A DNA stretch of 64,000 nucleotides from K189A clade bacterium (GTDB lineage Bacteria; Pseudomonadota; Gammaproteobacteria; Pseudomonadales; Azotimanducaceae): the NCBI GenBank assembly GCA_902528515.1, contig CABZTD010000003.1, positions 1-64,000 on the forward strand, written 5' to 3'. The notes under the pieces were generated by a model. That model saw nothing but the letters and a program-made list of their open reading frames with translations, did no database searches and was not told the DNA's origin. Below, piece by piece: positions 42,057-60,723 of this stretch (position 1 is the stretch's first letter; the number at the start of each line of letters is the position of its first letter). The translations under genes and the position numbers were made by a program.

Positions 42057-42203
42057 ATTAGCCCGTGACGGGCCCCTCGATGTGGGTGGCCTGCTTGTTA
42101 TCGGGGATTTGCTACAGATTTGTTGCGTGAGAGTCTATGATTGTGGAACCCGGAACGCGGGCACAATCTTCTGCTTTTCAAAGCCTTAACCGTTGCTATC
42201 ACG

Positions 42204-43223
42204 ATGTCTGTAGCTGAATTCTTAAATCGCCCTCTGCCTATTGCCTATGGGCAGCAAACCCTGCGCAACCGTATCGCGCTAGCGCCCATGGCTGGGATGA
42301 CGGATGTGCCCTTTCGCAGGCTGGCATGGCGATTTGGGGCGGGACACATGGTCAGCGAGATGGTGACATCAAAGCCAGAACTTTGGGACACGGGAAAGAG
42401 TCGTGCCCGCCGTGTGTTGATTAGCGAAGTTCGACCACAGGCGGTGCAAATTGCCGGCCATGACCCAGGCACTATGGCGGAGTCAGCGCGTCGTTTAACG
42501 GGCGAAGGTGTCGAGTGGGTAGATCTCAACTTTGGTTGTCCAGCTAAGAAGGTGTGCCGCAAGGCAGCTGGCTCCGCGCTGCTGGCTAACATAGATCAGA
42601 TTTCACGCATCGTTTCAGCAGTGGTGTCCGCCGTAGATGTACCCGTCTCCATCAAGACGCGCACAGGCCTAAGCCTCGAAGACAGTTCAGGCACTGAGGC
42701 TGCCATTGCCGCCCAAGAGGCTGGCGCACAACTTGTGGTGATGCATGGACGCAGTCGCGCCTGTCGATTCAAAGGGCATGCGTGTCCCGATCGGGTTCGC
42801 GAAGCTCGTCGTTTGCTGCGAGTGCCCTTGTTAGTGAATGGCGACATTGTCGACGATGTATCGGCGGAGCAGGCGCTTAAAAGTAGCGGGGCTGATGGGA
42901 TTATGCTAGGTCGGGGCGCCATGGGACAGCCCTGGATCTTCGCGGAATTCCTCGGGCTAGAGATGCCAACCAGTGCAGAGCGCTTTGATTTAATTTGTGA
43001 ACATCTGGATGCCATGCACTCTTTTTACGGTGAAGGTGCCGGCGTTCGGATCGCGAGAAAGCACATTCAGGCGTACTTGCAGCGATGGGGTATGCCTGAG
43101 TGGACTGATAACTTCATGGGCCTCACTAGTGCTCAGCAACAGCATGCTTGGCTACTGGCCCGGCGCGAACAAATGTTGCTACATGCCGCGATAAACACCT
43201 CCCAGAGCAAGGCCGCGGCCTAA
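42204..43223 (+). CDS. dusB: tRNA-dihydrouridine synthase B
   Basis: It reduces uridine at position 17 of tRNA with FMN and NADPH. The TIM barrel opens RIALAPMAGMTDVPFRRLAWRFGA and holds WVDLNFGCPAKKVCRKAAGSALL with the catalytic Cys. It continues VSIKTRTGL, VMHGRSR, NGDIVD and GIMLGRGAMGQPW, all FMN-binding. ATG 42204 gives the normal N-terminus; an open frame reaches back to 42141 with unrelated residues. In many gammaproteobacteria dusB is followed by fis; here the next gene is purH, 44 bp on. Confidence 0.95.
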   Translation: MSVAEFLNRPLPIAYGQQTLRNRIALAPMAGMTDVPFRRLAWRFGAGHMVSEMVTSKPELWDTGKSRARRVLISEVRPQAVQIAGHDPGTMAESARRLTGEGVEWVDLNFGCPAKKVCRKAAGSALLANIDQISRIVSAVVSAVDVPVSIKTRTGLSLEDSSGTEAAIAAQEAGAQLVVMHGRSRACRFKGHACPDRVREARRLLRVPLLVNGDIVDDVSAEQALKSSGADGIMLGRGAMGQPWIFAEFLGLEMPTSAERFDLICEHLDAMHSFYGEGAGVRIARKHIQAYLQRWGMPEWTDNFMGLTSAQQQHAWLLARREQMLLHAAINTSQSKAAA

Positions 43224-43267
43224 AACAGTTTGATAGATTCGGCATTTGCCGCGAAGCAGGAGCATAA

Positions 43268-44812
43268 ATGTCTTTGCAAATTCGTCGAGCGTTGATCAGC
43301 GTTTCGGACAAGACGGGTATCGTTGAATTTGGTCAAGCCCTAGCTGATGCTGGGGTGGAGCTATTGTCCACTGGAGATACCTTTAAGACCTTGAAGGATG
43401 CTAGGGTCGCTGTAAAGGAAGTAGCCGGACATACGGGCTTTCCAGAAATGATGGGCGGTCGAGTTAAGACCTTGCACCCCAAAATTCATGGCGGGATTCT
43501 CGGTCGGCGCGGTACCGATGACGCGGTAATGGACGCCAATGATATCCCGCCCATCGACCTCATTGTGGTAAATCTTTATCCCTTCGCTGAAACAATTGCC
43601 CGAGACGACTGTACGGACGCGATGGCGATCGAGAACATCGACATCGGCGGCCCTGCCATGGTGCGCTCAGGCGCGAAGAACCATGCTGATGTGCTAACGG
43701 TGACAAGCCCTCAAGACTATGCCCAGGTGATGGCAGCAATGCATGCAACTCAGATAGATCTTGAAATGCGCCGCGCTTTTGCGATCAAGGCGTTTCGCCA
43801 TACCGCCCAATATGATGCAACGGTTGCGGGCTATCTAGGCGCGCAAGAGCCGTTGCCCGACTCACTCACGCTGACTTACAGAAAGACCGCCGACATGAGG
43901 TATGGAGAAAATCCCCATCAAGCTGCCGCCTTTTATCGCGAGGTGGGCAAGCCGGTGCCGGGCACCATTGCCAATTATCAGCAGCTACAAGGCAAGGCGC
44001 TGTCCTATAACAATATTGCAGACACTGATGCCGCGTTGGAATGCGTGAAAGTCTTCGACGCGCCAGCCTGCGTGATCGTTAAGCACGCCAATCCCTGCGG
44101 CGTTGGTCTTGGAGCAGATCTTGCCGAGGCCTACGACAAGGCATTTGCCACGGACCCGACCTCAGCCTTTGGCGGCATCATCGCCTTCAATCTCCCTTTG
44201 TCTGGTCACCTGCTCGACAGCATTTTGACCAAACAATTTGTTGAAGTGGTGATTGCCCCAAGTGTGGATTCTGCTGCTGTTGAGGTGGCAAAGCAGAAAA
44301 AAAATGTACGCTTGCTGGTTTGCGGTGAACTAAATGCTGCTCCCAGAGGTCGCGAAATTAAACGCGTTGGCGGTGGCATATTGGTTCAGGATGCGGACGA
44401 GACATGTCTGGACGAAGAAGCTTTACAGATAGTTAGCAAGCATCAACCCAGCGATGCTCAAATGCAGGATTTACTCTTTGCTTGGAAGGTCGCATGGTTC
44501 ACCAAATCAAATGCGATTGTTTATGCACGTAATTTGCAGACAGTCGGTGTTGGTGCTGGGCAAATGAGTCGAGTGGTCAGCGCGAAGGTTGCGGGACTCA
44601 AAGCAGCAGAAGAGGGCCTGGTGGTTCACGGGGCAGTGATGGCGTCGGATGCCTTCTTTCCATTTCGAGATGGCATTGACGCCGCTGCCGAAGCCGGCAT
44701 CGCCGCCGTGATTCAACCTGGTGGGTCTGTGCGCGATCAAGAAGTTATTGATGCTGCAAACGAGCACGGTCTTGCCATGGCGTTCACCGGCGTAAGACAC
44801 TTCAGACACTGA
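43268..44812 (+). CDS. purH: Bifunctional phosphoribosylaminoimidazolecarboxamide formyltransferase/IMP cyclohydrolase
   Basis: It carries out the last two steps of IMP synthesis. The N-terminal IMP cyclohydrolase (MGS-like) domain has [37 protein letters not shown] and [16 protein letters not shown]. The C-terminal AICAR transformylase domain has [25 protein letters not shown] with the catalytic Lys-His, and [10 protein letters not shown]-type sequence. Length 514 fits (529 in E. coli). AGGAG precedes the ATG. It forms an operon with purD. Confidence 0.97.
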
Positions 44813-44843
44813 TGTTGCCAAGCGAGACGAGGCATTTAACACT

Positions 44844-46139
44844 ATGAAAGTACTAGTCGTTGGATCTGGCGGGCGCGAACACGCACTGGCTTGGAAGCTG
44901 AAACAAAGTGCAGACGTCGACGAAGTAATAGTGGCACCGGGTAATGCAGGAACTCATCAAGAGCCTGGTGTCAGAAACGTCGAAATCGCAGCCACCGATA
45001 CCGCGGGCCTCATCACGCTGTGCCAGCGCGAGAACATTGAATTCACGGTCGTCGGCCCAGAGGTGCCCTTGGTCGCTGGTATCGTTGACGCATTTGTCGA
45101 AGTCAATTTGGCTTGTTTTGGTCCAACGGCGAATGCTGCTCGCCTAGAAGGCTCCAAAGCTTTCAGCAAAGACTTTATGCAACGCTATGCAATTCCCACA
45201 GCAGCCCATCAAACGTTCACCGATGCTCCTGCGGCGAAGGTTTATGTTCAATCACAGGGTGTACCCATCGTGATAAAGGCAGACGGCCTGGCGGCTGGTA
45301 AGGGTGTCATCGTTGCGCAGACAGAAAAGGAGGCGGCTAACGCTATCGACGACATGCTTAGTGGTAATGGCTTTGGCGAGGCTGGTCATCGGGTGGTGGT
45401 TGAGGAGTTCTTGCCCGGCGAAGAGGCGAGTTTTATTTGTTTGTGCGATGGCACCAAGGCCATTCCTTTTGCTTCGTCGCAAGATCATAAGGCGCGGGAT
45501 GACGGAGATCGCGGCCCGAATACGGGTGGTATGGGTGCCTATTCGCCAGCTCCGGTAGTGACCCAGCAGATACATGACCGTGCGATGGAAGAAGTGATTT
45601 TGCCAACATTGAAAGGCATGCAGGAAGAAGGCTCACCCTATCGCGGTTTTTTGTACGCGGGGTTAATGGTCAGCCCATACGGCGAGATTAGAGTGGTGGA
45701 GTTTAACTGCCGGTTTGGCGATCCAGAGGCCCAGCCAATCATGATGCGTCTACGCGGTGATTTGCTGCCCGCATTGCAGCAAGCTGCCGCGGGATCTTTG
45801 CAAACAGATAGTTTGGCTTTCGATCCACGCACAGCTTTGGGTGTTGTTATGGCGGCGGGGGGTTATCCAAGCAGTTATGAAACTGGGGATCCCATCACGG
45901 GTTTAGACAAAAATCTCGAAGATACGAAAGTGTTTCATGCTGGTACCCGTAAAGAAAACGACGCCGTGATAACCTCTGGAGGACGTGTTCTGTGTGTGGT
46001 AGGCCTCGGCGATACCGCGGCCATGGCGCAGTTTCGTGCATATGAGCGTATCGAATCCATCGGTTGGCGGGGTCGCTATTTTCGCAAGGATATTGGTTAT
46101 CGGGCAGTGACCAGAGAGAACGAGGCGTCTCATGGGTAG
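44844..46139 (+). CDS. purD: Phosphoribosylamine--glycine ligase
   Basis: The second step of de novo purine synthesis joins phosphoribosylamine and glycine with ATP. The ATP-grasp enzyme has N-terminal KVLVVGSGGREHALAWKL, then IEFTVVGPEVPLVAGI, ADGLAAGKGVIVA, the metal-binding EFNCRFGDPEAQPIM and C-terminal VMAAGGYPSSYE. Length 431 matches the family. It ends 8 bp inside the start of coq7. Confidence 0.97.
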   Translation: MKVLVVGSGGREHALAWKLKQSADVDEVIVAPGNAGTHQEPGVRNVEIAATDTAGLITLCQRENIEFTVVGPEVPLVAGIVDAFVEVNLACFGPTANAARLEGSKAFSKDFMQRYAIPTAAHQTFTDAPAAKVYVQSQGVPIVIKADGLAAGKGVIVAQTEKEAANAIDDMLSGNGFGEAGHRVVVEEFLPGEEASFICLCDGTKAIPFASSQDHKARDDGDRGPNTGGMGAYSPAPVVTQQIHDRAMEEVILPTLKGMQEEGSPYRGFLYAGLMVSPYGEIRVVEFNCRFGDPEAQPIMMRLRGDLLPALQQAAAGSLQTDSLAFDPRTALGVVMAAGGYPSSYETGDPITGLDKNLEDTKVFHAGTRKENDAVITSGGRVLCVVGLGDTAAMAQFRAYERIESIGWRGRYFRKDIGYRAVTRENEASHG

Positions 46140-46791
46140 CTCAAGGACACGTCATTATCGCGCAAGCCATGGGGTCGATGAATGGATCACTGGCTTTGAC
46201 CGAGGTTTGCGAACCTTGACCGGCATACATCAGGCGGCTCGGCCCAACCCTGCAAAGGATGTGGCAGAAGCAGATTTGACGGCACAAGAACGTTCCCACG
46301 TTGCAGGCCTGATGAGGGTCAACCATACCGGTGAAGTTTGCGCCCAGGCGCTCTATGAAGGACAGGCGCTGGTGGCGTCGGATACAAACGCCAAGGCGTC
46401 CCTAATGTCCGCGGCGGCTGAAGAGCAGGACCACCTGGTTTGGTGCCGATCTCGTCTTCGTGAACTGGATGCCAGGCCGAGTCTGCTCGATCCGGTGTTT
46501 TTCGGACTCTCCTTTGCCATGGGTGCCGCAGCAGGTCTTATGGGGGACCGAGTAAGTTTAGGTTTCGTCGAAGCGACCGAAGATCAGGTGGTGCAGCATC
46601 TCGACGAGCATTTGCAGACCCTGCCGCAGCACGACGAGAAAAGTCGCAAGGTTTTAGAAGCCATGCGCGCTGACGAGAGTCGTCACGGCGCCCAGGCCCT
46701 GGTAGACGGAGGACAGGAATTTCCCAAGCCGGTCAAGCGTGTCATGGGTGGATTGGCTAAAGTGATGACAAAAACCGCATACCACTTTTAG
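46132..46791 (+). CDS. coq7: Demethoxyubiquinone hydroxylase
   Basis: Coq7 hydroxylates 2-polyprenyl-3-methyl-6-methoxybenzoquinone in ubiquinone synthesis, with a di-iron site at the membrane. Two ligand motifs are visible: RVNHTGEVCAQALYEG (Glu) with EEQDHLVW (ExxH), and EATEDQVVQHLDEHL with ADESRHG. GLSFAMGAAAGLMGDRVSLGF is the membrane-associated part between them. Length 219 matches Pseudomonas Coq7. It overlaps purD by 8 bp. Confidence 0.95.
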   Translation: MGSSRTRHYRASHGVDEWITGFDRGLRTLTGIHQAARPNPAKDVAEADLTAQERSHVAGLMRVNHTGEVCAQALYEGQALVASDTNAKASLMSAAAEEQDHLVWCRSRLRELDARPSLLDPVFFGLSFAMGAAAGLMGDRVSLGFVEATEDQVVQHLDEHLQTLPQHDEKSRKVLEAMRADESRHGAQALVDGGQEFPKPVKRVMGGLAKVMTKTAYHF

Positions 46792-46858
46792 CAGACTGCC
46801 GGGTCTGGCCCCTGAGTCAGAGTCAGAACCATAACCAAAGACAGACTCCGAGTTCTGT

Positions 46859-47281
46859 CTAGGCGGATTCCTGTAGCTCAAAGGAATGCGAAATAACCAC
46901 GCCAGCCTTGTCCAACATAATAGACGCTGAACAGTACTTCTGAGCAGATAACTCGATCGCTCGCTGCACCCTTGCTGGGTCGAGGGCATTGCCCGTGATG
47001 TGAAAATGAATGTCGATCGCCTCAAAGACGGCGGGAACAGTATCTGCGCGCTCGGCGTGTATCGAAATCGACAAGCCTTCCACCTGTTGCCTGCCTTTAC
47101 GCAAGATATCGACAACATCAAAGGCCGTGCAGCCGCCCAAGCCCATCAACATTAGTTCCATGGGACGACTCCCGCGATCTTGCCCGCCTTGCTCTGGCGG
47201 ACCATCCATGGCAACTGTATGTCCGCTTTTGTTGTTAGCAACAAAGTGCACATTGTCCTGCCAATCTACCTTGACCTGCAT
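46859..47281 (-). CDS. OsmC/YhfA family protein
   Basis: This 140-residue thiol peroxidase-fold protein has GGSRP-like start GSRPMELMLMGLGGCTAFDVVDIL with the first redox Cys and ELSAQKYCSASIML with the second, as in OsmC/Ohr. The DRGSRPMELML context matches the YhfA subgroup, which neighbours crp in E. coli and Pseudomonas. It may reduce organic hydroperoxides, but YhfA's activity is not established. Here too it lies next to crp, although crp is dead. Confidence 0.88.
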   Translation of the reverse strand: MQVKVDWQDNVHFVANNKSGHTVAMDGPPEQGGQDRGSRPMELMLMGLGGCTAFDVVDILRKGRQQVEGLSISIHAERADTVPAVFEAIDIHFHITGNALDPARVQRAIELSAQKYCSASIMLDKAGVVISHSFELQESA

Positions 47282-47350
47282 AGGGCTTCCTCTTCGTCGT
47301 TGAGGTAAAGACTGCTGAAATTCAGTCGTGCTGACAACTGATGGTGATTT

Positions 47351-47409
47351 CTCCTAGGCAATTCCCTACCAACTACGCTCCTAGGCGATTCCCTAGGAGC
47401 GTAGTTGGT
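47351..47409. repeat. Perfect 18-bp inverted repeat with overlapping direct repeat
   Basis: ACCAACTACGCTCCTAGG (47368-47385), a CGATTC loop and CCTAGGAGCGTAGTTGGT (47392-47409) form a perfect hairpin without a T run. It overlaps an imperfect direct repeat: CTCCTAGGCAATTCCCTA (47351-47368) and CTCCTAGGCGATTCCCTA (47378-47395) differ at one base. CCTAGG occurs three times. It lies upstream of the broken crp. It could be a REP-like element, an IS end or an old operator. Confidence 0.8.
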
Positions 47410-47655
47410 TGGAATTTTACTACCGTTTGCCGTCTCTCAGGCGCCATTTCGGAGTTAAGGAATAGCATTGAGAAAGCATAAAAAGTGACTGGTTCAATTT
47501 GTTAGTGGCTACCTGATTTGTTTGCAGCCTAGGGCAGCGATTTCTGCAGAACGCGAGATAGAGCAAGCACGATAAATCGAAAACAAGCCTGGCCGACAAC
47601 AAGATAAGCCAAAAGGTAAATCACCCACGCTGCAGATCGTTAGAGGAGAGACTCG

Positions 47656-47784
47656 ATGAAGGCGACAGAACACAACGGATATCACAGGTCAGCATTGCAC
47701 AATCAAAATGCCACTGTTCACCAAGATTCGCTTGCTTCACAGATAGATTCGCCATCCACGATGGAGGGGTTGTCGGAAAAATAA
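47656..47784 (+). CDS. Possible 42-residue ORF preceding the crp pseudogene
   Basis: TAGAGGAGAG lies 5 bases before the ATG at 47656, and the frame runs 42 codons of polar sequence to a TAA at 47782. It resembles nothing I know. The same frame continues after the stop (SLNPEECRAGIEALPPVSLK) towards the region where Crp homology begins, so it may be the 5' remnant of the dead regulator gene. The stretch 47410-47655 shows nothing else. Confidence 0.25.
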   Translation: MKATEHNGYHRSALHNQNATVHQDSLASQIDSPSTMEGLSEK

Positions 47785-47884
47785 TCCACTGCATCAGAGC
47801 CAAGCCTTAACCCTGAGGAGTGTCGGGCAGGTATCGAAGCGTTACCTCCCGTTTCGCTGAAGTGCTTGGTGGCAGTTAGTAAGA

Positions 47885-48498
47885 TGGACTAAGGTTGGTT
47901 TGCTGGTTGCGCTGTTGCAAGAGGCGAGTGTTTGCACATTCAAACAAAAAGAGGTCGTGCTTGAGCCCGGAGAGAACGATGATCGAAAACTTATGGTAGT
48001 CGATGGCATCGTGATGCTGCACACCTACAAGGAAAATGGTCGGCAGATCATCACCGATCACCTGGGTCGTAGATATTTTTTCGGCGAAACGGTTTTGACC
48101 GATCCTTAGGGTTCGGATTTTTGGGCCAACTCGCAAGGAGGCTGTGTAACGACTCCCATTTCGAGAGAGCGATTTATGGAAGTGGGTATGACGCATCTCG
48201 CACTGCTGCATGCTCTGACGAGTCACCTTATCCAACGCATTCATTGGTAGGTCATATGGCCTGCGATTTGGCGTTTTTGGACGTTAGCGGTCGTGTTGCT
48301 AACGCTTTGCAGCTGCTGGCCAAGGGACCTTATGCGATCTCTCACCTAGGTGGCATACAGATTCGCTACACCCGCTAAAAAATTGGCTTGATTGTGGGTT
48401 GGTCTAGAGAAATGGCGGGTCCTGCAATCAAGGTGCTTGCGCATCATGGCGTTATAGAAGTGAATGGCAAGAATACTTTGGTTCGCGGTACTCGCTAG
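47885..48498 (+). pseudogene. crp: Decayed cAMP receptor protein gene (crp/vfr)
   Basis: Homology to Crp/Vfr runs the length of the region but in two frames. The cyclic-nucleotide domain is in one: EVVLEPGENDDRKLMVVDGI, then ITDHLGRRYFFGETVLTD, a TAG at 48107-48109, and SRERFMEVGMTHLALLHALT. A frameshift near 48245-48252 leads to MACDLAFLDVSGRVANALQL (Crp: KVGDLAFLDV.GR.A). A TAA at 48376-48378 stands where Crp has Gln in TRQEIG. The helix-turn-helix end follows as KIGLIVGWSREMAGPAIKVL and finishes NGKNTLVRGTR, as in Crp's GTR terminus. With two stops and a frameshift the gene cannot make a normal regulator. Its place between trpC and osmC is the normal one for vfr. Confidence 0.88.
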
Positions 48499-48526
48499 CG
48501 GTTGAATACACAACTTAAATCTTTCG

Positions 48527-49327
48527 TTAGCGCAGATCAAATAACGCTGCAAGTGCGGCTCCCGGGCTGGGTTGCCGCATCAGCGCCTCTCCTACTAAGA
48601 AGCAGTAGACCCCTCGTTCGAGCATGAGCTCGATGTCTTGCCTAGTGCTAATACCACTCTCCGTAACCACTGTCGTATGCCTTGGTATGTCGCAGAGAAG
48701 TTCAAGGGTAGTGTTCAGCGACGTCTCAAAGGTCTTTAGATTACGATTGTTGATGCCAATCAGATTTGGGTCGAGATTTAGTGCAGCCTCCAGCTCTGCG
48801 CGATCATGAACCTCGATTAAGATGTCGAGACCTAAATCTTTGGCCGTTCCATGCAGCGAGGCTAGTTCAGAATTAGAGAGCGCGCTGGCAATGAGCAGAA
48901 TGCAATCGGCGTTCATTAGTCGCGCCTCGTAAATCTGGTATGAATCGATGGTGAAGTCTTTACGGATAATTGGCAGATCCACCGCAGCACGTACCTCGCG
49001 CAGGTACGCGTCTTTTCCTTGAAAGTACTCTTCGTCGGTCAGGACCGATAAACAGCTAGCACCATTAGCAGCATAGTCCTGGGCAATAGCCATAGGGTCG
49101 AAATCTGCGCGAATCACGCCCTTACTCGGTGACGCCTTTTTGATTTCCGCGATCACGCCAGGTTGCCTAAGTTCAGCTTGGCGGTGTAAAGCGGCAACAA
49201 AACCTCGTGGTGCTGGGAGAGAGGCATTTGCGAGTTCTGTTTCAAGGTCGGTTTGGCTGCGCTCAGCCTTGCGTTCAATGAGTTCGCCCCTCTTGGTCGC
49301 GATGATTCTCTCAAGGATAGTGCTCAC
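48527..49327 (-). CDS. trpC: Indole-3-glycerol-phosphate synthase
   Basis: This TIM-barrel enzyme makes indole-3-glycerol phosphate in tryptophan synthesis. It has [20 protein letters not shown] (catalytic Lys and Ser), [50 protein letters not shown] and [12 protein letters not shown]. Length 266 matches the monofunctional form. Its start overlaps the trpD stop by 4 bp. Confidence 0.97.
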
Positions 49328-50358
49328 GATGATTCGGCCATCAGTGAGGTGATGCGTACCAGTTCAGCTAGGCGCTCCTTGGCTTGACCACTGGAGATAG
49401 CGTCTTGTGCCATGACTACACCGTTTTTTAGGGAATTGGCGATGCCACCGACATAAATGGCTGCGCCAGCGTTTAGGGCTACGATATCCGCGGCAGCACT
49501 GGTGTCGTCGGTGAGAGATTGTTTTACCAAGGCTAGGCTGGATTCAGCAGAATCCGCGACGATACCGGCAAGATCAGCTGGGGTTCTCGGGTCCAGACCA
49601 AGCTGAGCCGGCTCAATGTCGTACTCGGTAATAACGCCGTCCTCGAGCTCGACCACATGGGTGGGCACATCCACGCGAAATTCATCTAGCCCGTCACTGT
49701 GAACTACCATGGCATGTTCGGATCCCAGGAGTTTGAGCACCTCAGCTACCTTGCGCTGCCAGTCTCTGGAAAACACCCCAATGACCTGGCGTTTTGCCCC
49801 GGCGGGATTCGTCATCGGGCCAAGCACATTCATGAGGGTGCGAATGCCGATTTCCTGTCGAATCGGTCCCGCAAAGCGCATGGCCGAGTGGTAGGCCTGA
49901 GCAAATATAAAGCCGACACCAATCTCGTCGATGCAGGTGGCAACCTGTTTCGGCGTCAAGGAGAGCGAAACTCCAGCAGCTTCCAGGACATCGGCGCTGC
50001 CGCTGAAACTGGTCATCTTTCGATTGCCGTGCTTGGCAACCTTGGCACCGGCGCTTGCCGCAACGAAGGCCGCTGCGGTTGAAATGTTAAAAAGTTTGCT
50101 GCCACTGCCGCCGGTACCGCAGGTGTCGACCAAAGTCTCACTTGCTGCGGGTACCTTTGTCGACAGCGCGCGCATGGTAAGGGCCGCACCAGCGATCTCC
50201 TCGGCGGTTTCGCCCTTTACGCGAAGCGCGGCAAGGAGCGCACCGATCTGCCCCGGCGTCGCCTCGCCGGACATAATTTGCAGAAAAGCGGCTGCCGCAT
50301 CATCTTGGCTAAGATCGTTGCCTTCGACGATTTGAGCGAGTGCCTGCGGTATGTTCAT
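49324..50358 (-). CDS. trpD: Anthranilate phosphoribosyltransferase
   Basis: It joins anthranilate to PRPP. The fold's PRPP-binding glycine loop is [17 protein letters not shown], then [26 protein letters not shown], the anthranilate site [40 protein letters not shown], and HSDGLDE. Length 344 is normal. It is 9 bp after trpG and overlaps trpC, forming trpE-G-D-C on the minus strand. Confidence 0.97.
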
Positions 50359-50367
50359 AGGTTGTTC

Positions 50368-50943
50368 CTATCGCTGCAAAAAATTATTCAACAATTGATG
50401 GCCATGCTCGGTGAGTATTGATTCTGGATGAAACTGCACCCCCTCGACATCGAGCTCACGATGACGCAGACCCATGATTGCGTCTATCTCACCGTTTTCT
50501 TCTGTCCATGCCGTGACCTCCAAACAGTCGGGCATGGTTTCAGGAGCGACGACCAGAGAATGATAGCGCGTTGCCTCGAAGGGATTCGCGAGTTCGGCAA
50601 ATACGCCGCTACCGTTATGATGAATCATGGAGGTTTTGCCGTGCATCACGGCCTTGGCTCGAACGATGTCACCGCCAAAGCTCTGGCCGATGCTTTGATG
50701 TCCAAGGCAAATGCCTAGCAGCGGAATTTTGCCGGCAAAGTAGGCCACTGTGTCTAACGAAACTCCTGCCTCATTGGGGGTGCAGGGCCCAGGCGAGATG
50801 ACGATTTTTTGCGGCGCCATGGCTTCGATGTCGGCTATGGTTATTTCATCGTTGCGTCTAACCGCTACCTCGGCGCCCAGTTCCAGCAGGTACTGCACAA
50901 CGTTAAAGGTAAATGAGTCATAGTTGTCGATCATTAATATCAT
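50368..50943 (-). CDS. trpG: Anthranilate synthase component II (glutamine amidotransferase)
   Basis: This class I amidotransferase supplies ammonia to TrpE, and may also serve PabB. The start [23 protein letters not shown] is typical. The nucleophile Cys is in [17 protein letters not shown] and the His-Glu pair in VQFHPESI. Length 191 is the stand-alone form. ATGA overlap with trpE indicates coupling. Confidence 0.96.
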
Positions 50944-52430
50944 TGGTTACCTCCGACTTTCCCAAGCTCGGGGTGAACCATGCGGTTCTCGGCCATGGCT
51001 GCTGCGCGAAAGATTGCTCGACCTTTGTTTAGGCTTTCTTTCCACTCCAGTCTGGGCACCGAGTCATGGACGATGCCGCCCCCCGCTTGGATATAAAGAT
51101 AGCCGTCCTTAATTACCGCCGTGCGAATGGCGATGGCAGTATCCATGTTGCCATTCCATGCCAGATATCCTACGGCGCCGCCGTAAATACCGCGTTTAAC
51201 CGGCTCTAGCTCGTCGATAATTTCCATGGCTCGAACCTTGGGCGCGCCGGACAAGGTGCCAACGGGCAGCGTGGCACGTAGCACGTCCATGCAGGAATTG
51301 TTGGGCTGGAGTTTGCCCTCTACTGTGGAGGATAAATGCATGACATGGGAGTAACGTTCGATGGCGAAGCGTTCAATCACCTCAACGGAACCGGCCTGAG
51401 ACACTCGCCCCACATCGTTGCGACCGAGATCAATCAGCATCAGATGCTCGGCGATTTCTTTCGGATCTGCTCTCAGCTCTTCCTCGAGAGCAAGATCTTC
51501 CTCCTCGCTGTGACCGCGACGACGGGTGCCCGCTAGCGGTCGATTGGTGATCACCCCGTCCTCGACTCGAGCCAGAATTTCTGGCGAAGAACTGACAATC
51601 TGAAAGTCGCCGAGATCCATAAAGTACATGTAGGGCGACGGATTGAGGCTGCGCAAAGCGCGGTACATATTGATCGATGGTGCCTGAAATGGAATGTGCA
51701 TACGCTGGGCCAGTACGACCTGCATGACGTCACCCGCTCGCGTGTATTCCTTAATGCTCTCTACCGCTTCCTGAAAAGCCTCTTCACCAAATTCAGAAAG
51801 GAAGTCGCTTTCGCGTAGGGTTTGATTTGCATTGCCATGTTCTAGGCCGGTCACAGGCTGTGCTAAGGCGGCCTCGCGCTCTTGCAGTCGGCAATGCATT
51901 TGGTCTTGTGCGCTCACGTCGTCGGCATCGATCAAACTGATCATCTTCATGCGACCCTCAAGGTTATCGAAGACGACAACCTCCTCACTTACCATGAGCA
52001 CTATGTCGGGTGTATCTAAACGGTCGTCAGCAATACTGGGCTGCAGGCGTTTTTCAACATAGCGCACGGTGTCGTAGCCAAAGTAACCCACCAAGCCACC
52101 AAAGAAGCGTGGTAGTTCGTCAAGGTTTGCAACGTCGAAACGCGCCTGAAAGGCTTCAATAAAGGACAGCGGATCGTCGGTCTCAACCTCTTCGACGATC
52201 TCGTCGTCGGTGAGCACTTGAACGCGACGGTCATTGACCTTGAGGACGGTCCGAGCGGGTAGTCCAATGATGGAGTACCGACCCCACTTTTCACCGCCTT
52301 GGGCCGACTCCAACAAATAGCTGTAGGGGCCTCGTGCGAGTTTCAGATAAACCGAAAGGGGTGTGTCGAGATCTGCAAGAGCCTCGTGAATGACGGGAAC
52401 ACGTCGATAGATAGGATTTGAATTTGTCAT
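50940..52430 (-). CDS. trpE: Anthranilate synthase component I
   Basis: TrpE forms anthranilate from chorismate. The feedback site is [18 protein letters not shown], with LLES binding tryptophan. The chorismate domain includes [73 protein letters not shown] and [12 protein letters not shown]. The ATG at 52430 is used because the open frame beyond it (to 52574) is unlike the family. I see no Trp-rich leader or attenuator in the 240 bp before it. It follows rpe-gph, as in Pseudomonas. Confidence 0.97.
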
Positions 52431-52670
52431 GTGCCATTCCGCAGAAAGAAAATGAGGGGTTACCGGAGGCTTCTTTTTGGCACCATCACGGCAAGATGGG
52501 CATTGAAACTCACACGCATTTAGCGTCGCCAGAAACCCCGCCAGCGTCTCTCGTTTCTGTTCAGGTTCACACAAGACATAGCGTTAAATCTGCCTGCAAA
52601 TTCACGCAGAGGCTAACACGAGATTTCGTTGAAGTGGAGCATTCGTGGCGGTGCGTAAACCCAATGTCCG

Positions 52671-53342
52671 TCAGCCAGCCGACAGTATTTCTCGCATGTG
52701 ATCAAAGACGAATTCCGGCTCTAAGGACTGCACATCAATGCCATGGTTATAGCCACTGCGAAAACAAGCCACATCTACTTTGGCTGCCTTGGCCGCACCC
52801 ACATCGGCACTGGAATCGCCGATCATTAGGGCCTGCTCCGCAGTCACATTCAGCTCTTTGAGACACAGCAGTACGGGGTCTGCAGCGGGCTTGGGTTGTG
52901 GTGCAGTATCGCCGCTGATCACCGACTCGAAGTAGCCGTCTAGAGACAGAGCTGCCAGCAGAGGTAAAGTAAAACGCTCCGGTTTGTTGGTCACCACGGC
53001 TAGCTTCGCACCTGCGTCATGCAGCGCGTCTAAGGTATCGATGACGCTTTCATACGGAGTGCTCGAGTCTGCGACATGGGCTTCGTAGTAGCTTAGGAAC
53101 CGTTCAAATAGTGCATCTGTTTCAGGTTCTGTGAGCCGTAGCTGGTGATGTTGTACTGCCTGAGTGATCGAATACCGCGCACCAAAGCCAATCCACTGTC
53201 TCGCCTGATCGACGGTCACGCCAGGGAATCCTGCCTCAAGCAGACTGATATTCAGCGCTCGACCGAGATCCGGAGCGGTATCTACCAGAGTGCCGTCAAG
53301 ATCGAAAAGGTAGGCATCGTAACGGCGCAGCATGCTGTTCAT
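52671..53342 (-). CDS. gph: Phosphoglycolate phosphatase
   Basis: It hydrolyses 2-phosphoglycolate arising from oxidative DNA repair. The HAD motifs are [23 protein letters not shown], a Lys in PQPKPAADP, and [16 protein letters not shown]. Length 223 and the position between rpe and trpE match Pseudomonas gph. It overlaps rpe by 4 bp (ATGA). Confidence 0.94.
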
Positions 53343-54016
53343 GTATGGGCAATTTCTTCGCGCATGGCGCTTATCGTGGCTGCATAGTTGTCTGCGCCGA
53401 ATATCGCAGTACCCGCTACAAAAGCATCTGCCCCTGCCGCGGCAGCTGCGCCGATGTTGTCGATTTTAACACCGCCATCAATTTGCAGTCGAATATCTCG
53501 ACTACAGGCGTCGATAAGGCCGCGCGCCTGGCGCAGCTTTTCAAGGCTTGAGGGGATAAAGGCTTGACCCCCAAAACCAGGGTTGACCGACATGATTAAC
53601 ACCAGATCGATCATCTCGATGACCGGCTCTAATGCTTCGAGGGGGGTCGCTGGGTTGAAAACTAATCCAGCCTTGGCACCTCCGTCGTGAATCATAGAGA
53701 GAGTTCGATGCAGGTGCTCAGTCGATTCAGGGTGGACGGTTATATAGTCTGCGCCGGCAAGAAGGAATTCCTTTACTAACCGGTCAACGGGTTTCACCAT
53801 CAGGTGAACATCGACACACGCATCAATACCAGCTTTGCGCAATGCGCTGAGCACCAGCGGCCCGACGGAAAGATTGGGCACATAGTGATTATCCATCACA
53901 TCAAAGTGAATCGTATCGGCGCCGGCGGCCAGCACGTTGGAGACTTCATCGCCTAAGCGGGCAAAGTCTGCAGCCAATATGGATGGGCATATCCAAGGGG
54001 GTGTGGGAGGTGTCAT
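53339..54016 (-). CDS. rpe: Ribulose-phosphate 3-epimerase
   Basis: This pentose-phosphate enzyme interconverts ribulose and xylulose 5-phosphate in a TIM barrel. Motifs are [37 protein letters not shown] (metal Asp and His), [23 protein letters not shown] and IQVDGG-like [16 protein letters not shown] 54016 is preferred over the in-frame TTG at 54040 because it gives the usual short N-terminus. Confidence 0.95.
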
Positions 54017-54093
54017 GGCAACTGTTATGACCGAAAACAACTATGTTAACCGAGCTGAATGCAGATGCATGAGTTTTCTTAACGGGCGACGAT

Positions 54094-54759
54094 CTAGCTA
54101 AAGAAATTAACCCCCTTAATGCTCTGATAGTCATCAGGTGTGCCAATATCGGTCCACTGCCCCGTATACACTTGAGCGCCGACTTTATTTTGGGCCACAG
54201 CGTCAAAGAACAGATCGCGCACTGAAAATGGTCCGCTGGGTGAATCATTAAACAGATCCCGATGAATTAGGCCGATGCCCGCATATACGTAATCGCCGCC
54301 TCGCGCGGCAATCCGGCCTTCGGCGAAGGTGAAATCGCCGGTATCTCTGCTAGAAGGTTTTGGCACTAGCACTAAGTGGGCGAGGTCGCCGTGCTTAAGG
54401 GTCGTTGGTAGGTGGGAAAAGTCAAAGTCCGAGAAAATGTCGCCATTACAAAGCCAAAACATGGGTTGCTGAAGCAGCGGTAGTGCCTTCTTGATACCGC
54501 CGCCCGTTTCTAACAGTTCGTTTTCGCGGCTAAAACGAACCGACAGCCGCACACTTTTGTAACGAGTAAGTGCGTGCTCAATTTGCTCACCAAGGTGGTG
54601 AATATTGACGATTACCTCATTCACTCCTGCCTGCTCGAGTTGATCGAGCAGGCGAAAGATCAGCGGTCTGCCCCGTACCGGTAGCAGGGGCTTGGGGGTC
54701 TTGTTCGTAAGCGGCGCAAGACGTGAGCCTTTGCCAGCGGCGAGAACCATGGCCTTCAT
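54094..54759 (-). CDS. murU: N-acetylmuramate alpha-1-phosphate uridylyltransferase
   Basis: MurU makes UDP-MurNAc from MurNAc 1-phosphate in the peptidoglycan salvage route that bypasses MurA, and hence fosfomycin. The nucleotidyltransferase opening is MKAMVLAAGKGSRLAPLTNKTPKPLLPV, with ELLETGGGIKKAL, CNGDIFSDFD and WTDIGTPDDYQSI. Length 221 matches Pseudomonas MurU. It overlaps amgK by 4 bp. Confidence 0.93.
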   Translation of the reverse strand: MKAMVLAAGKGSRLAPLTNKTPKPLLPVRGRPLIFRLLDQLEQAGVNEVIVNIHHLGEQIEHALTRYKSVRLSVRFSRENELLETGGGIKKALPLLQQPMFWLCNGDIFSDFDFSHLPTTLKHGDLAHLVLVPKPSSRDTGDFTFAEGRIAARGGDYVYAGIGLIHRDLFNDSPSGPFSVRDLFFDAVAQNKVGAQVYTGQWTDIGTPDDYQSIKGVNFFS

Positions 54760-55805
54760 GAAGCATTATTTCCAATTAGAAGCGAATTGGTGGCGGCCTG
54801 CTCCGCCCACTCACCCAGCAAGGGCGATAGCATTTGAGTCGCGTCATGAGCTGCAGTCAGCGCTGACGTTCGTGCAAGCACTGAAGGGATATAGTGCAGG
54901 TGGCTGGATTTGCCGTCGCGCAAATGCAATCGAGCAAAAATGCCGACGGCTTTGATATGGCGCTGGATGGCGCAAGCATCGTGCCACCAGCTAACCTTTT
55001 CTTGTGCCTCCCCGGCAAGCACTTCACTCCTTGACGCGAATCGGTGCAGGGCTGTCGCTATCACTGCGTCGTCGTGCACCGCATAACAATCTTCAAGCAG
55101 AGAGGCGGCGTCATAGAGCGCTGGGCCGATAAGCGCATCCTGAAAGTCCACCATGCCAATGCGTGGGCTATCTGGATCGCCCGAAAGCAACAAGTTGCGG
55201 CAATGGTAGTCTCGGTGAACGCAAACTTGAGGTTGCTCCAGCATGGCGTCAACCAGGGTCGAGCGAGCCGCTGCCAGAGTTGTATGGTCATTAGCGGACA
55301 GCGGTAGGGACATTAGGCTTCTCGCAAACCACTCAGCGCAGAGGTCAAACTCCATGATTAGCCGATCTTCTGTGTAGGGGGGTATCTGAGGGTCAGCAAG
55401 CTTCTGCAAAGGTTTAAGCGCATCTAGTGCAAGATTGAGAATGTCCGTGAGCGCGGTATGGTCGGCGCCAAACCTCAAATAAGCATCGGATAAATGGACA
55501 GAGCCCAAATCTTCCATGAGGAAAAAGCCGTTGACTTGATCGGCGGCCAAAACTTTCGGTGTGCCGAGGCCGTGAAATAGTTCTGCCAAGGCGGCAAATT
55601 GCTCGTTGTTTTCTAGGGATGGTGGGCTCGACATGGCGACCCATGATCGCTCCGACAGCGCATCTTGTAGGCGGTAGAACTCGCGATGGCTGGCCTCGAC
55701 CCGCAGAGGATGAGCCAGGATTTGGCAGGGAGCCGAGAACAAAGTCTGCAGCTGCTGCGAACACCAGTGACTGAGTAATTGAGCTGTTGTGTTAAGTGCC
55801 GGCAC
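54756..55805 (-). CDS. amgK: N-acetylmuramate/N-acetylglucosamine anomeric kinase
   Basis: AmgK phosphorylates MurNAc and GlcNAc at C1, feeding MurU. The APH-type kinase shows EASHREFYRLQ, FFLMEDLGSVHLSDAY, the catalytic VCVHRDYHCRNLLLSG and the metal-binding MVDFQDALIGPALYDAASLL. Length 349 and the divergent position to lptD are as in Pseudomonas. The 43 bp between amgK and lptD must hold both promoters. Confidence 0.93.
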   Translation of the reverse strand: MPALNTTAQLLSHWCSQQLQTLFSAPCQILAHPLRVEASHREFYRLQDALSERSWVAMSSPPSLENNEQFAALAELFHGLGTPKVLAADQVNGFFLMEDLGSVHLSDAYLRFGADHTALTDILNLALDALKPLQKLADPQIPPYTEDRLIMEFDLCAEWFARSLMSLPLSANDHTTLAAARSTLVDAMLEQPQVCVHRDYHCRNLLLSGDPDSPRIGMVDFQDALIGPALYDAASLLEDCYAVHDDAVIATALHRFASRSEVLAGEAQEKVSWWHDACAIQRHIKAVGIFARLHLRDGKSSHLHYIPSVLARTSALTAAHDATQMLSPLLGEWAEQAATNSLLIGNNAS

Positions 55806-55848
55806 GAATTGATTATATCCAAAGAGCCAATTCTTTTATCATGCCGCG

Positions 55849-58347
55849 ATGAACTCATTCTTATGCCGTTTAAAGCGGTCCGTAATGCTCGCACTAGTGC
55901 TGTTCAGTGGACACGCTTTGACAGAAGAGGGTTTAACCGGCTCTGCAGAAATCGAATCTGCTGCATCGGCTGCGAGCGATTCAGCCACGGACCTAGCGCG
56001 ACGCTTTTATCGTCACACTCTGGTGCCAAGCGCTGAGAATTTCGGCCAGTGTTTGGGGGGCTACGCGGTGCCAGCCCACTTGCAGCCTCCCGGTCATGGA
56101 TCCGCTGAGACACAAGATGCCCCTCGTGATCGCCTGATTACCGCTGAGCTTGACCGCCTAACAGGTGAGCGCGATGGACAGATTCAGCTGCAGGGCAACG
56201 TGCTAATTCGCGAGGGTCAGCGGTTGCTGCAGGCGCAAAGCGCTCAGCTCGAACAAGATGGTAGCGAAATTCGCTTCCCTCAAGGCCTGTTAATAACCCA
56301 GCCCAATCTGGTGGTTGCAGGTGAGCAGGCCAAGATCGGGCTGCAGAAAGAGACCATGCAGCTCAACAAAGTGCAGTGGTTGTTGCTGAAGCAACAGCTA
56401 CGCGGCTCGGCGGCTTCTCTGACTCAGAGCGATTCCGGTCAGCTGGTGCTAAATAAGGCAGAGCTAACTCGTTGTCTGCCAGGTAACCAAGGCTGGTTCC
56501 TTGGCGTTGAGCGGTTGGAGATTAACGAGGATAAAGGATATGCCCAGGCCAGGGGCGCGGTGCTTAAAGTTAAGTCGATCCCCGTCGCCTATTTGCCGCG
56601 CCTGCGGGTCTCCATGGACGGCAGCCTCGCCAGCGGTTGGCAAGTACCGACCGGAGGCCTGAGTAGTCAGGATGGACTCGAGGTTTCATTTCCTTACTAC
56701 TGGAGCATTGACGAAACCCTCAGCGCGACCGTCGCGCCTCGCTGGATCAGCCGTCGCGGTCTTGGTGTCGACGGCCAGTTGAACTATGCCGATCAATTTC
56801 AGGTAGCTGAAGTAAGCGGGTCTTTTTTGTCCTCGGATGATTTATACAATGGTTACTTCGATCGAGATACGTATAAGGCCCTGGGCGGCGATCGTGTTGC
56901 AGGTTCGTTTGAGACTGCAGATCGCTGGTTGTTGGCGCTGCAGCAGGCCGGGAAGATTGGTCCGCTGAGCACGCGCATCGATTTTGCACGCAGTAGCGAC
57001 AGGGACTTTTTTCGCGACCTCGACTCCTTTGTGGGCTTAGCCAGCCCGACAGCATTACAGCAGTTCGCTGAGGTCGCCTACTTGACCGATCACCTAGATT
57101 TGCGTCTGCAAACGGTGGGCTTTCAGCGTTTGGACGAGTTGAACATCTCGGACTATAAAGTAAGCCCAGCGCTGCGGTTGGACTATCGCAGCAATCCTCT
57201 TGAACCAGGTTTCGGATGGGGGCTAAGGGCACAAGTCGTCGAGTTTGGCCAGCGCTTGGGGCGTTTGTCCAACGAGCACCGCATTAATCCCGATGTCGAG
57301 GGCCGCCGAACTCATCTGGAGCCCTCTATCGCCTTCCGTCGGGATTCTCAGGCTGGCTACTGGGCGCTTAGGGGCGGTTACAAATATACCCAGTACAATC
57401 TCGACGAACCGGTGCGGAGCGGGATTTTAGGCCGAACTGGCCTAGAGCGAGAGGCCGATCGGGGCGTCGAATTCTTCAGCCTCGACGCTGGCTTGTTCTT
57501 CGAGCGCGACCTCGAATTAGGTAATCGTCAGTGGACTCAAACCCTGGAACCCCGCCTTTTTTATCTGTATCAGGGCTACGAGAATCAAGATGCCCTACCT
57601 GTATTTGACAGCGTCCCGCGCAGCATGGCGTTTGATGCTCTATTTGCTGACAACCGATATGTGGGTTTGGATCGCATCGGAGACGCAGACCTAATGACCC
57701 TGGCCGCGACAAGTCGTCTGCTTGATAGTAGCGGACGCGAGCGCGCCGCGATGGGCCTAGCTTACTTACAGCATCTGTCGAGTCCGCGTATTCGGTTGCT
57801 TGGGCGAGCAGATATTAGCGCGGGGGATCTTGTCGCAGCGGAACAAACCGTTGAGCTTTCGCCCAGAGTACAGTTGCGTGGTTGGCAGCTTTGGCACAAA
57901 GACCGAGGCAAGTGGGAAGAGCTACGTGGCTCGGTACACCTGCGCGGATCCGGGCGGAGAGTTTATAATCTTGGCTTTAACCAGCGCGACTGGCTGAACA
58001 TTAAGCAAGTCGAGCTCTCAACTTATGCGCCGCTGAGCCAGCATCTGGCAGTCACGGCTCGTTGGCACTACGATTTAGAGAGTGAGCGTAGCCTTGAAGC
58101 ATTTATCGGTTTGGAATACGACGATTGCTGCATCAAGCTTAGACTTATCGCTCGGCAGTATTTGGAGAATCCAAGCTATCGGGACTTTGGCATTCCACAG
58201 GCGCTCTTGCCGACCAATGAATTGCGTACTGATCGAGGGTTGCTCCTAGAGGTTGAGTTAAAAGGGCTTGCGGGTATTGGCAGTAAGGTAGAGACCTTGT
58301 TGCGCCGCGGCATCTACGGTTACGGTGCACCCAGAGACCGACGTTAG
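55849..58347 (+). CDS. lptD: LPS-assembly protein LptD
   Basis: This outer-membrane beta-barrel inserts LPS with LptE. A signal peptide (SVMLALVLFSGHALT) precedes a periplasmic OstA jellyroll: ITAELDRLTGERDGQIQLQGNVLI, then SAQLEQDGSEIRFPQGLL. Disulfide Cys residues are visible at GQCLGG and TRCLPGNQGW in the N-domain and a CC pair near the end (YDDCCIKLRL), as in E. coli. The barrel starts around VSFPYYWSIDETLSAT. Length 832 is in the family range. It heads lptD-surA-pdxA-rsmA-apaG-apaH. Confidence 0.95.
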   Translation: MNSFLCRLKRSVMLALVLFSGHALTEEGLTGSAEIESAASAASDSATDLARRFYRHTLVPSAENFGQCLGGYAVPAHLQPPGHGSAETQDAPRDRLITAELDRLTGERDGQIQLQGNVLIREGQRLLQAQSAQLEQDGSEIRFPQGLLITQPNLVVAGEQAKIGLQKETMQLNKVQWLLLKQQLRGSAASLTQSDSGQLVLNKAELTRCLPGNQGWFLGVERLEINEDKGYAQARGAVLKVKSIPVAYLPRLRVSMDGSLASGWQVPTGGLSSQDGLEVSFPYYWSIDETLSATVAPRWISRRGLGVDGQLNYADQFQVAEVSGSFLSSDDLYNGYFDRDTYKALGGDRVAGSFETADRWLLALQQAGKIGPLSTRIDFARSSDRDFFRDLDSFVGLASPTALQQFAEVAYLTDHLDLRLQTVGFQRLDELNISDYKVSPALRLDYRSNPLEPGFGWGLRAQVVEFGQRLGRLSNEHRINPDVEGRRTHLEPSIAFRRDSQAGYWALRGGYKYTQYNLDEPVRSGILGRTGLEREADRGVEFFSLDAGLFFERDLELGNRQWTQTLEPRLFYLYQGYENQDALPVFDSVPRSMAFDALFADNRYVGLDRIGDADLMTLAATSRLLDSSGRERAAMGLAYLQHLSSPRIRLLGRADISAGDLVAAEQTVELSPRVQLRGWQLWHKDRGKWEELRGSVHLRGSGRRVYNLGFNQRDWLNIKQVELSTYAPLSQHLAVTARWHYDLESERSLEAFIGLEYDDCCIKLRLIARQYLENPSYRDFGIPQALLPTNELRTDRGLLLEVELKGLAGIGSKVETLLRRGIYGYGAPRDRR

Positions 58348-58408
58348 TATTGATTGGCGGGCACAGACGAAGATTCACCTGCAAATACAGACACATCAGG
58401 AAAAGGAA

Positions 58409-59746: not shown

Positions 59747-59748
59747 CG

Positions 59749-60723
59749 ATGATCGCCATAACGCCCGGTGAGCCTGCCGGGATTGGCCCGGACTTGGTCA
59801 TCCAGGCGGTTCAGCAAGATAGACCAGCTTGCAAGATCGTCGTCGCCGACGCCAACATGCTGCAGCAGCGTGCCGCGGTGCTCGGGTTGCCTCTCGATAT
59901 TAATGAGCGTTTAGATGCGCCAAGCAGGCAAGCGGGTCATCTTACTGTTCTGCATATCCCGCTTGCCGAGAAAGTCGTTCCGGGCAGTTTGAACGTCGCC
60001 AATGCCAGCGGCACCCTTCAAGCCCTGGATCGAGCCATTCAAGGCTGCATGAGTGGCGAGTTTGTGGCTCTGGTAACCGGCCCCATGCAAAAGTCCGTCA
60101 TGATGCAAGCAGGCTACGATTTTACTGGCCACACAGAGCATCTTGCCAAGCAGGCGAAGGTTGAGGATGTGGTAATGATGCTGGCAAGCGATGTCATGCG
60201 TGTCGCCTTGGCGACCACTCATTTGCCGCTGCAGGCCGTTTCAGCGCATCTGACCGAGGTTCTGCTGGAGCGCCGTTTGCGTATTCTGCATAAGGCTCTG
60301 CAGTCTCAGTTTGGTTTGCGGGATCCGCGGATACTGGTTTGCGGTCTTAACCCTCATGCGGGTGAATCGGGCCGAATGGGGCGTGAAGAGATCGATGTTA
60401 TCGAGCCGGTGTGCGAGCGCCTGCGGGCATCGGGTATGACGATCCAGGGGCCGCTTCCAGCAGATACGCTGTTTACGTCAAAGTTTCTGAAATCTGCAGA
60501 TGCCGTCATGGCGATGTTTCACGATCAAGGCCTGCCCGTGCTGAAATATTCGGGATTTGGCCGTGCGGTGAACGTTACGCTGGGTTTACCCTTTGTTCGC
60601 ACATCTGTGGACCATGGCACGGCCCTGGATCTGGCGGGCAGAGGCGACGCCGATTCAGGCTCCTTTGCCGCCGCCATGGCTACTGCGGCGGACTTAGTCA
60701 TGGGAAGCCATGCAACCGCGTAA
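59749..60723 (+). CDS. pdxA: 4-hydroxythreonine-4-phosphate dehydrogenase
   Basis: PdxA acts in pyridoxal 5'-phosphate synthesis. Motifs are AITPGEPAGIGPDLV, LVTGPMQKSVM, DFTGHTEHLAKQA (metal His), AHLTEVL, VCGLNPHAGESGRMGREE, AMFHDQGLPVLKY and FVRTSVDHGTALDLAG. Length 324 is normal. It starts 2 bp after surA and overlaps rsmA by 14 bp. Confidence 0.96.
   Translation: MIAITPGEPAGIGPDLVIQAVQQDRPACKIVVADANMLQQRAAVLGLPLDINERLDAPSRQAGHLTVLHIPLAEKVVPGSLNVANASGTLQALDRAIQGCMSGEFVALVTGPMQKSVMMQAGYDFTGHTEHLAKQAKVEDVVMMLASDVMRVALATTHLPLQAVSAHLTEVLLERRLRILHKALQSQFGLRDPRILVCGLNPHAGESGRMGREEIDVIEPVCERLRASGMTIQGPLPADTLFTSKFLKSADAVMAMFHDQGLPVLKYSGFGRAVNVTLGLPFVRTSVDHGTALDLAGRGDADSGSFAAAMATAADLVMGSHATA

What the first reader, a model, noticed from the sequence alone, without database searches (positions are those of the whole stretch)
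47885..48498. Global regulator crp/vfr is a pseudogene at its conserved locus
Seen directly: the whole length of Crp, from the cyclic-AMP domain to the helix-turn-helix and final GTR, can be read, but with a TAG at 48107, a frameshift near 48250 and a TAA at 48376. Family knowledge: vfr lies between trpC and the osmC-type gene in Pseudomonas, exactly as here. Inference: the lineage has lost cAMP-Crp control, or uses a second copy elsewhere. Loss of such a hub is rare in free-living gammaproteobacteria.
Basis: partly seen in the sequence, partly recalled or inferred. Interest (0 to 1): 0.75.

Follow-up and report, generated by a model that had tools for sequence, protein, structure and literature searches.

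The report
Dead Crp gene, already cAMP-blind
A marine bacterium has lost the classic regulator Crp at its usual place, and its close relatives suggest that the protein had already stopped sensing its signal molecule, cyclic AMP, before the gene died.

Summary
The crp remnant runs 47656-48498 (not from 47885) with four in-frame stops (47782, 47890, 48107, 48376) and two frame breaks (near 47893 and 48243); none of these six is in the eight aligned relatives, and the 17 neighbouring genes compared are open. Sequencing error is unlikely: changes on this lineage spread over the three codon positions in crp (18/21/24) but not in trpC (15/4/33) or trpD (12/3/32). The interpretation needs correcting. 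In 14 of 30 same-genus genomes with a crp, this one included, cAMP-contact residues (E. coli R82, S83 and, where readable, S128) are replaced, while R180/E181/R185 of the DNA-reading helix stay in every intact copy of the genus. Five pairs of pocket-less copies show strong purifying selection (dN/dS about 0.035-0.10). So cAMP control probably ended before the gene died. Loss is not unique: G016 has a second decayed copy, G012 lacks the recognition helix, and G014 has trpC next to osmC with no crp. Ligand-free action of pocket-less Crps is inferred, untested.

The parts
47656..48498 (+). crp (vfr) pseudogene, whole remnant: N-terminal extension, cyclic-nucleotide domain, helix-turn-helix, terminal GTR-stop
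   Evidence: 65-78% identity to the intact Crp of G007 in three pieces
   Evidence: 47644-47904 matches residues 1-86 of the G007 Crp, 2 stops
47782..47784 (+). in-frame stop TAA
47890..47892 (+). in-frame stop TAA
47893..47900 (+). frame break: four extra bases relative to eight aligned relatives
48107..48109 (+). in-frame stop TAG in the cyclic-nucleotide domain
48110..48130 (+). remnant of the loop that in E. coli Crp carries R82/S83; reads GSDFWAN, no arginine: the pocket-less form shared with the intact sisters
48240..48255 (+). frame break: one base fewer than in eight aligned relatives
48376..48378 (+). in-frame stop TAA just before the helix-turn-helix
48379..48450 (+). decayed helix-turn-helix: reads VGWSREMAGPAIK, the cysteine and the second arginine of the genus motif changed
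48527..49327 (-). trpC, intact neighbour
46859..47281 (-). osmC-like gene, intact neighbour
46132..46791 (+). coq7-like gene, intact neighbour

Best explanation
The window carries a real, old pseudogene of crp/vfr in a marine gammaproteobacterium of the OM182/K189A group. Shown: six lesions, codon-neutral decay on this lineage, intact and selected copies in its sisters, and loss of cAMP-contact residues in the sisters and in the readable part of the remnant. Inferred: in an ancestor Crp stopped responding to cAMP and became a ligand-free DNA binder (or took another ligand) with the same operator preference; its job shrank; in this lineage Crp was no longer needed and the gene decayed. A class III cyclase that may still make cAMP in this genome would then act through other proteins.
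For: Four in-frame stops and two frame breaks, none in eight aligned relatives, against 17 of 17 open neighbours among the genes I took as shared with G007. Codon-position tally on the G000 lineage (outgroup G024): crp domain 18/21/24, trpC 15/4/33, trpD 12/3/32; position 2 against 3, crp versus trpC+trpD, Fisher p 1e-5. Sister copies G007/G042 intact with dN/dS about 0.035; four other pocket-less pairs 0.04-0.10 (NG86). Pocket residues replaced in 14 of 30 crp-bearing genomes of the genus and kept in 16 of 30, while R180/E181/R185 stay in all intact copies of the genus. Three pocket-less Crps score 196-212 bits on NCBIfam NF008732 (cAMP-activated CRP, cut-off 266); two pocket-bearing ones from the genus score 277 and 343 (four of these five were given as matched stretches, not whole frames). 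Class I adenylate cyclase in 2 of 40 genomes of the genus. TrpC+TrpD tree: G000 with G007+G042 at 100%.
Against: No binding or expression data. Pocket state does not track cyclase content: class III hits occur in 13 of 14 pocket-less and 11 of 16 pocket-bearing genomes, and pocket-bearing G002, G003, G018, G022 and G038 show no cyclase of class I or III. Exact TGTGA-N6-TCACA sites are few everywhere (1 in G000, 0-8 elsewhere), so no regulon decay could be shown. The species tree puts the pocket-bearing G002 group beside pocket-less G040 (support 43; nearby nodes 20-79), so one or several pocket losses cannot be told apart, though the Crp tree joins the two pocket-less groups at 100%. T127 is kept in G039, and residues 127-128 of the remnant fall at a frame break. 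Crp of G000 against sister Crp was not significant with outgroup G024 (p 0.15), and was with G001 (p 0.003). The nearest relative, G020 (93.4% DNA identity over 4 kb), ends inside osmC, so the lesions could not be seen in a second genome.
Confidence: 0.75

Rival explanations
1. The lesions are sequencing or assembly errors and the gene is intact.
For: The genome is a MAG in 89 contigs, 75% complete; reads are not available.
Against: Six lesions in 843 bases against none in 17 neighbouring genes; substitutions between the lesions also show little codon constraint, which errors would not cause; helix-turn-helix residues fixed in the intact copies are changed.
Confidence: 0.04
2. Loss of this gene is what ended cAMP-Crp control: the protein was a normal cAMP receptor until it decayed.
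For: crp is at the ancestral locus; cyaA (class I) was not found.
Against: Its intact relatives inside and outside its own small clade lack R82, S83, T127 and S128 equivalents, and the readable part of the remnant (GSDFWAN) has no arginine either.
Confidence: 0.12
3. An intact Crp replaces it elsewhere in the quarter of the genome that is missing.
For: Completeness is only 75%; one cNMP-binding protein runs off a contig end (C16).
Against: 0 of 30 Crp-bearing genomes of the genus hold a second strong Crp match; the C16 protein has its cNMP domain after about 148 residues of other sequence and tblastn with E. coli Crp (E 1e-3) did not match it.
Confidence: 0.08
4. The gene still works through stop read-through and programmed frame changes, or as a shorter product.
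For: Two open pieces of 69 and 85 codons remain.
Against: Little codon constraint; helix-turn-helix residues lost; none of eight aligned relatives shares a lesion.
Confidence: 0.02

Closest known systems
Crp of Escherichia coli and Vfr of Pseudomonas aeruginosa (cAMP-activated Crp; solved structures matched)
   Same: Locus neighbours as in Pseudomonas flexibilis; the intact sisters align over the cyclic-nucleotide and helix-turn-helix domains (about 40-45% identity to E. coli); same DNA-reading residues R180, E181, R185.
   Different: Phosphate arginine and other cAMP contacts replaced; N-terminal extension of about 80 residues (pocket-bearing relatives such as G002 have long frames too); in the window the gene is dead.
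Clp of Xanthomonas (binds DNA without ligand, released by c-di-GMP; PMC12937710, passages read)
   Same: A Crp-type regulator that does not need cAMP.
   Different: The paper states that Clp keeps an Arg98-Gly87 motif like the cAMP-binding one; the OM182/K189A proteins have no arginine at that place.
Non-allosteric FNR/CRP regulators such as SdrP and DdrI (PMC12937710, conclusions section read)
   Same: Proposed there to have come from ligand-binding forms by partial filling of the cavity with buried salt bridges; the new charged residues here (83 to D or K, 128 to D or E in most) could fit that idea.
   Different: Those regulators are remote; here pocket-bearing and pocket-less forms occur at one locus within one genus.

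Membership tests
Crp/Vfr (cAMP-activated global regulator), the window gene | Orthology by sequence and by locus (trpC - crp - osmC) | tested here: met
Crp/Vfr, the window gene | Open reading frame | tested here: not met
   4 in-frame stops, 2 frame breaks
Crp/Vfr, intact sister (G007) | cNMP_binding plus Crp helix-turn-helix domains | tested here: met
   PF00027, PF13545, PF00325 all over cut-off in G007
Crp/Vfr, intact sisters | cAMP contacts R82, S83, T127, S128 (matching contacts in PMC10127613, passages read) | tested here: not met
   G71/E72 are kept in the intact copies and T127 is kept in G039
NCBIfam NF008732 cAMP-activated CRP (equivalog) | Score at or over 266 bits | tested here: not met
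   G007 204 (whole frame), G040 196 and G017 212 (matched stretches); pocket-bearing G018 277 and G003 343 (stretches) pass
Crp/Vfr, intact sisters | Recognition helix R180, E181, R185 | tested here: met
   kept in every intact copy of the genus; one outgroup, G034, has K185
Crp/Vfr, intact sisters | cAMP needed for DNA binding | not testable with these tools
   needs a binding assay
Pseudogene | Loss of codon constraint on its own lineage | tested here: met
   one of five comparisons not significant (p 0.15)

The most novel reading that the evidence does not exclude
Within one genus, at one unmoved locus, Crp passes from a cAMP receptor, to a selected ligand-free regulator with the same DNA-reading helix, to repeated death of the gene. 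This would be a natural series for the proposal that non-allosteric FNR/CRP regulators come from allosteric ones by filling the ligand cavity with charged residues.
Probability: 0.45. Interest if true: 0.65.

Novelty: new variant of a known kind. Interest (0 to 1): 0.48.

Why it matters
Crp is the textbook allosteric activator. A genus that holds cAMP-pocket Crps, pocket-less but strongly conserved Crps and dead crp genes at the same locus gives a way to test how a global regulator loses its signal and then its job, with ordinary protein assays on proteins about 40-64% identical to E. coli Crp.

Tried and rejected
Autoregulation: eight of the 16 pocket-bearing genomes have a perfect TGTGA-N6-TCACA 454-490 bases upstream of the crp match, and 0 of the 14 pocket-less ones does (G016 had only 390 bases to scan). 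In the four of these eight that I checked, the palindrome lies inside the osmC coding sequence, so protein constraint may explain it and I make no claim from it.

Regulon decay: exact palindrome counts are too low everywhere to test. The tool's control was the reversed pattern (0-3 per genome).

cyaA loss as the cause: class I cyclase was found in only 2 of 40 genomes, so it is missing from most pocket-bearing ones too and does not explain which Crps lost the pocket.

More deaths among pocket-less Crps: 3 clearly broken of 14 (G000, G016, G012) against 0 of 16 pocket-bearing; suggestive only, no test was run. G044 has one stop in its N-terminal extension and a 228-aa frame left; I did not count it as dead.

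The crp gene of the nearest relative, G020: its contig ends inside osmC, and neither crp nor trpC was found in that genome.

No structure was predicted: the fold is not in doubt and a monomer model would not show ligand need.

Literature: among the titles listed by the searches none is on Crp in OM182/K189A (some searches listed only part of their matches). Read: PMC10127613 (passages) and PMC12937710 (passages and the conclusions section). This is not proof that nothing is in print.

Full report
What is there. Window 47656-48498 holds the whole length of a crp gene in pieces. Reading from there: TAA at 47782, TAA at 47890, four extra bases near 47893-47900 (frame changes), TAG at 48107, one base fewer near 48243 (frame returns), TAA at 48376, and the normal end at 48496-48498. 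None of the six lesions is in any of the eight aligned relatives. A search with the intact Crp of the relative G007 found the three pieces at 65%, 75% and 78% identity, E 2e-28, 1e-55 and 8e-34. Neighbours are coq7, an osmC-like gene, trpC, trpD, trpG and trpE (named from homology, not from a curated record). In 28 of 28 named loci that hold trpC, a Crp and the osmC-like gene, Crp lies between the two, in Pseudomonas flexibilis and Microbulbifer as well.

Where it comes from. The genome is a MAG of 2.13 Mb in 89 contigs, 75% complete. Named relatives by TrpE are OM182 bacterium MED-G155 (91%), MED810 (87%) and HS5SWF_bin.10 (86%), then others, a K189A-clade MAG among them (78%). On a TrpC+TrpD tree (31 genomes of the genus, three outgroups) G000 groups with G007+G042 at 100%. 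G020 is nearer still (PurD 95%; 93.4% DNA over 4 kb) but its contig ends inside osmC, and neither crp nor trpC was found in it.

Is it error? I took 17 neighbouring genes shared with G007 over window 42171-61450, choosing the main frame where frames overlap; each lies in one open frame. Changes unique to the G000 lineage by codon position (outgroup G024) are 18/21/24 in the Crp domain, 15/4/33 in trpC, 12/3/32 in trpD, and in the shorter controls 2/2/5 in osmC and 6/2/10 in coq7; the two sisters together have 5/5/13 in crp. With G001 as outgroup crp gives 21/22/22 against 2/3/14 in the sisters; requiring both outgroups, 16/20/8 against 2/3/7. Fisher tests: position 2 against 3, crp versus trpC+trpD, p 1e-5; positions 1+2 against 3, crp versus trpC p 0.009, versus trpD p 0.002, versus sister crp p 0.15 (outgroup G024) and 0.003 (outgroup G001). 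Position-2 change in crp (21 of 200) is close to position-3 change (24 of 199), so the gene has probably decayed for most of the branch since the split from G007/G042 (inference). This is a real, fairly old pseudogene.

Did it end cAMP control? Probably not. In E. coli Crp, cAMP is held by G71, E72, R82, S83 and T127, with S128 of the other subunit (numbering recalled; matching contacts in Clr, and CAP T127/S128, are in passages of PMC10127613). Of 40 genomes of the genus, 30 hold a Crp (a 31st, G023, gives only a weak match in a 798-aa frame). In 16 the pocket reads GE-RS-TT. In 14 it does not. G007, G042, G001, G044, G045, G024, G012 and G040 have S, A, T or L at 82, D at 83, A at 127 and D or N at 128. 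G017, G021, G005, G039 and G016 have Y or H at 82, K at 83, S (T in G039) at 127 and D (E in G039) at 128. The readable part of the G000 remnant (GSDFWAN) belongs to the first kind; its 127-128 region falls at a frame break. In the first kind tblastn leaves a gap at 82-83 while MAFFT and HMMER align S or A and D there; either way the loop holds no arginine. R180, E181 and R185 are kept in every intact copy of the genus. Every other Crp listed among the named loci, all outside these pocket-less groups, has GE, R82, S or T83, T127 and T or S128.

Are the pocket-less Crps alive? Yes where intact. NG86 dN/dS values: G007/G042 0.019/0.55, G001/G044 0.024/0.47, G001/G045 0.078/1.00, G017/G005 0.086/0.90, G017/G021 0.079/1.86 (dS high in the last three). 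Pocket-bearing pairs: G002/G004 0.007/0.32, G002/G018 0.011/0.53, G019/G050 0.022/0.88 (YN00 gives the same picture). Three pocket-less proteins fall under the NCBIfam cut-off for cAMP-activated CRP (204, 196, 212 against 266); two pocket-bearing ones pass (277, 343) (all but G007 given as matched stretches).

Other losses. G016 (K189A group): two in-frame stops, G71E72 reads GG, and a flat codon tally 18/13/14 against 7/1/6 in G017, 6/2/11 in its own trpC and 8/1/16 in its own trpD; its contig begins inside the gene. G012: a 53-base gap removes the recognition helix and shifts the frame; the rest is still constrained (13/9/29), so the gap is recent or an assembly fault. G014 (94% complete): the trpC and osmC matches end 43 bases apart with no crp. 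G043 and G023 have neither osmC nor crp beside trpC. Seven more genomes have neither trpC nor crp (G011, G013, G015, G020, G041, G051, G052); six of the seven are 82% complete or less. Among the named loci, L090, L105, L108, L109 and L133 have trpC and osmC but no Crp match at E 1e-2 with three Crp queries.

cAMP supply. Class I cyclase: 2 of 40 genomes, G008 and G019. Class III: 27 of 40, G000 included; 13 of the 14 pocket-less and 11 of the 16 pocket-bearing. G000's class III cyclase (361 aa) lies beside genes for SpoIIE-type, SiaC and DUF6272 proteins, so cAMP may still be made and used by something else (inference). Pocket-bearing G002, G003, G018, G022 and G038 show neither class, which is unexplained.

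How many times was the pocket lost? Unclear. The Crp tree joins the two pocket-less groups at 100% (G000 and G016 not in it), but the TrpC+TrpD tree puts the pocket-bearing G002 group beside pocket-less G040 with support 43, and nearby nodes are weak. The different replacement residues would also fit two losses.

Verdict. A genuine crp pseudogene with more lesions than reported. The wider point is that the regulator had very likely gone cAMP-blind before it died here, and that this genus holds the stages side by side. Ligand-free action of the intact pocket-less proteins is inference, and a binding assay would decide it.

Noticed in passing
G000:C27, L203:1652-6100: A SpoIIE-type phosphatase, a SiaC-family protein, a DUF6272 protein and, on the other strand, a 361-aa class III cyclase lie together; this resembles the Sia system of Pseudomonas (recalled), with a class III cyclase as the possible output. 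PF00211 hits in 354-371-aa frames occur in other genomes of the genus too.
   Followed up: partly
G001:C44, G005:C150, G011:C98, G016:C13, G017:C62, G020:C113, G021:C80, G024:C136 (L033-L040): A conserved small protein (195-222 aa frames) with a cNMP-binding domain, ending in GENFNS; what follows the domain looked unlike a Crp helix-turn-helix by eye (not tested). The PF00027 search of G000 gave no such hit; G000 was not searched with this protein itself. A possible cAMP effector other than Crp.
   Followed up: partly
G000:C16:40098-40724 (L043:6099-6725): A protein with a cNMP-binding domain after about 148 residues of other sequence, cut by the contig end; the only other PF00027 hit in the genome.
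   Followed up: partly
window 47368-47409: A perfect 18-bp inverted repeat with a 6-base loop between osmC and crp (RNA fold -41.9 kcal/mol, z -9.6); no other copy in the held genome.
   Followed up: partly
L185, L186, L188, L190 (osmC coding sequence): A perfect TGTGA-N6-TCACA inside osmC in these four; a palindrome at like distance upstream of crp occurs in eight pocket-bearing genomes.
   Followed up: partly
G011, G013, G015, G020, G041, G051, G052: Neither trpC nor crp found; G011 is 91% complete. Possible joint loss of the region in part of the genus, or missing contigs.
   Followed up: no
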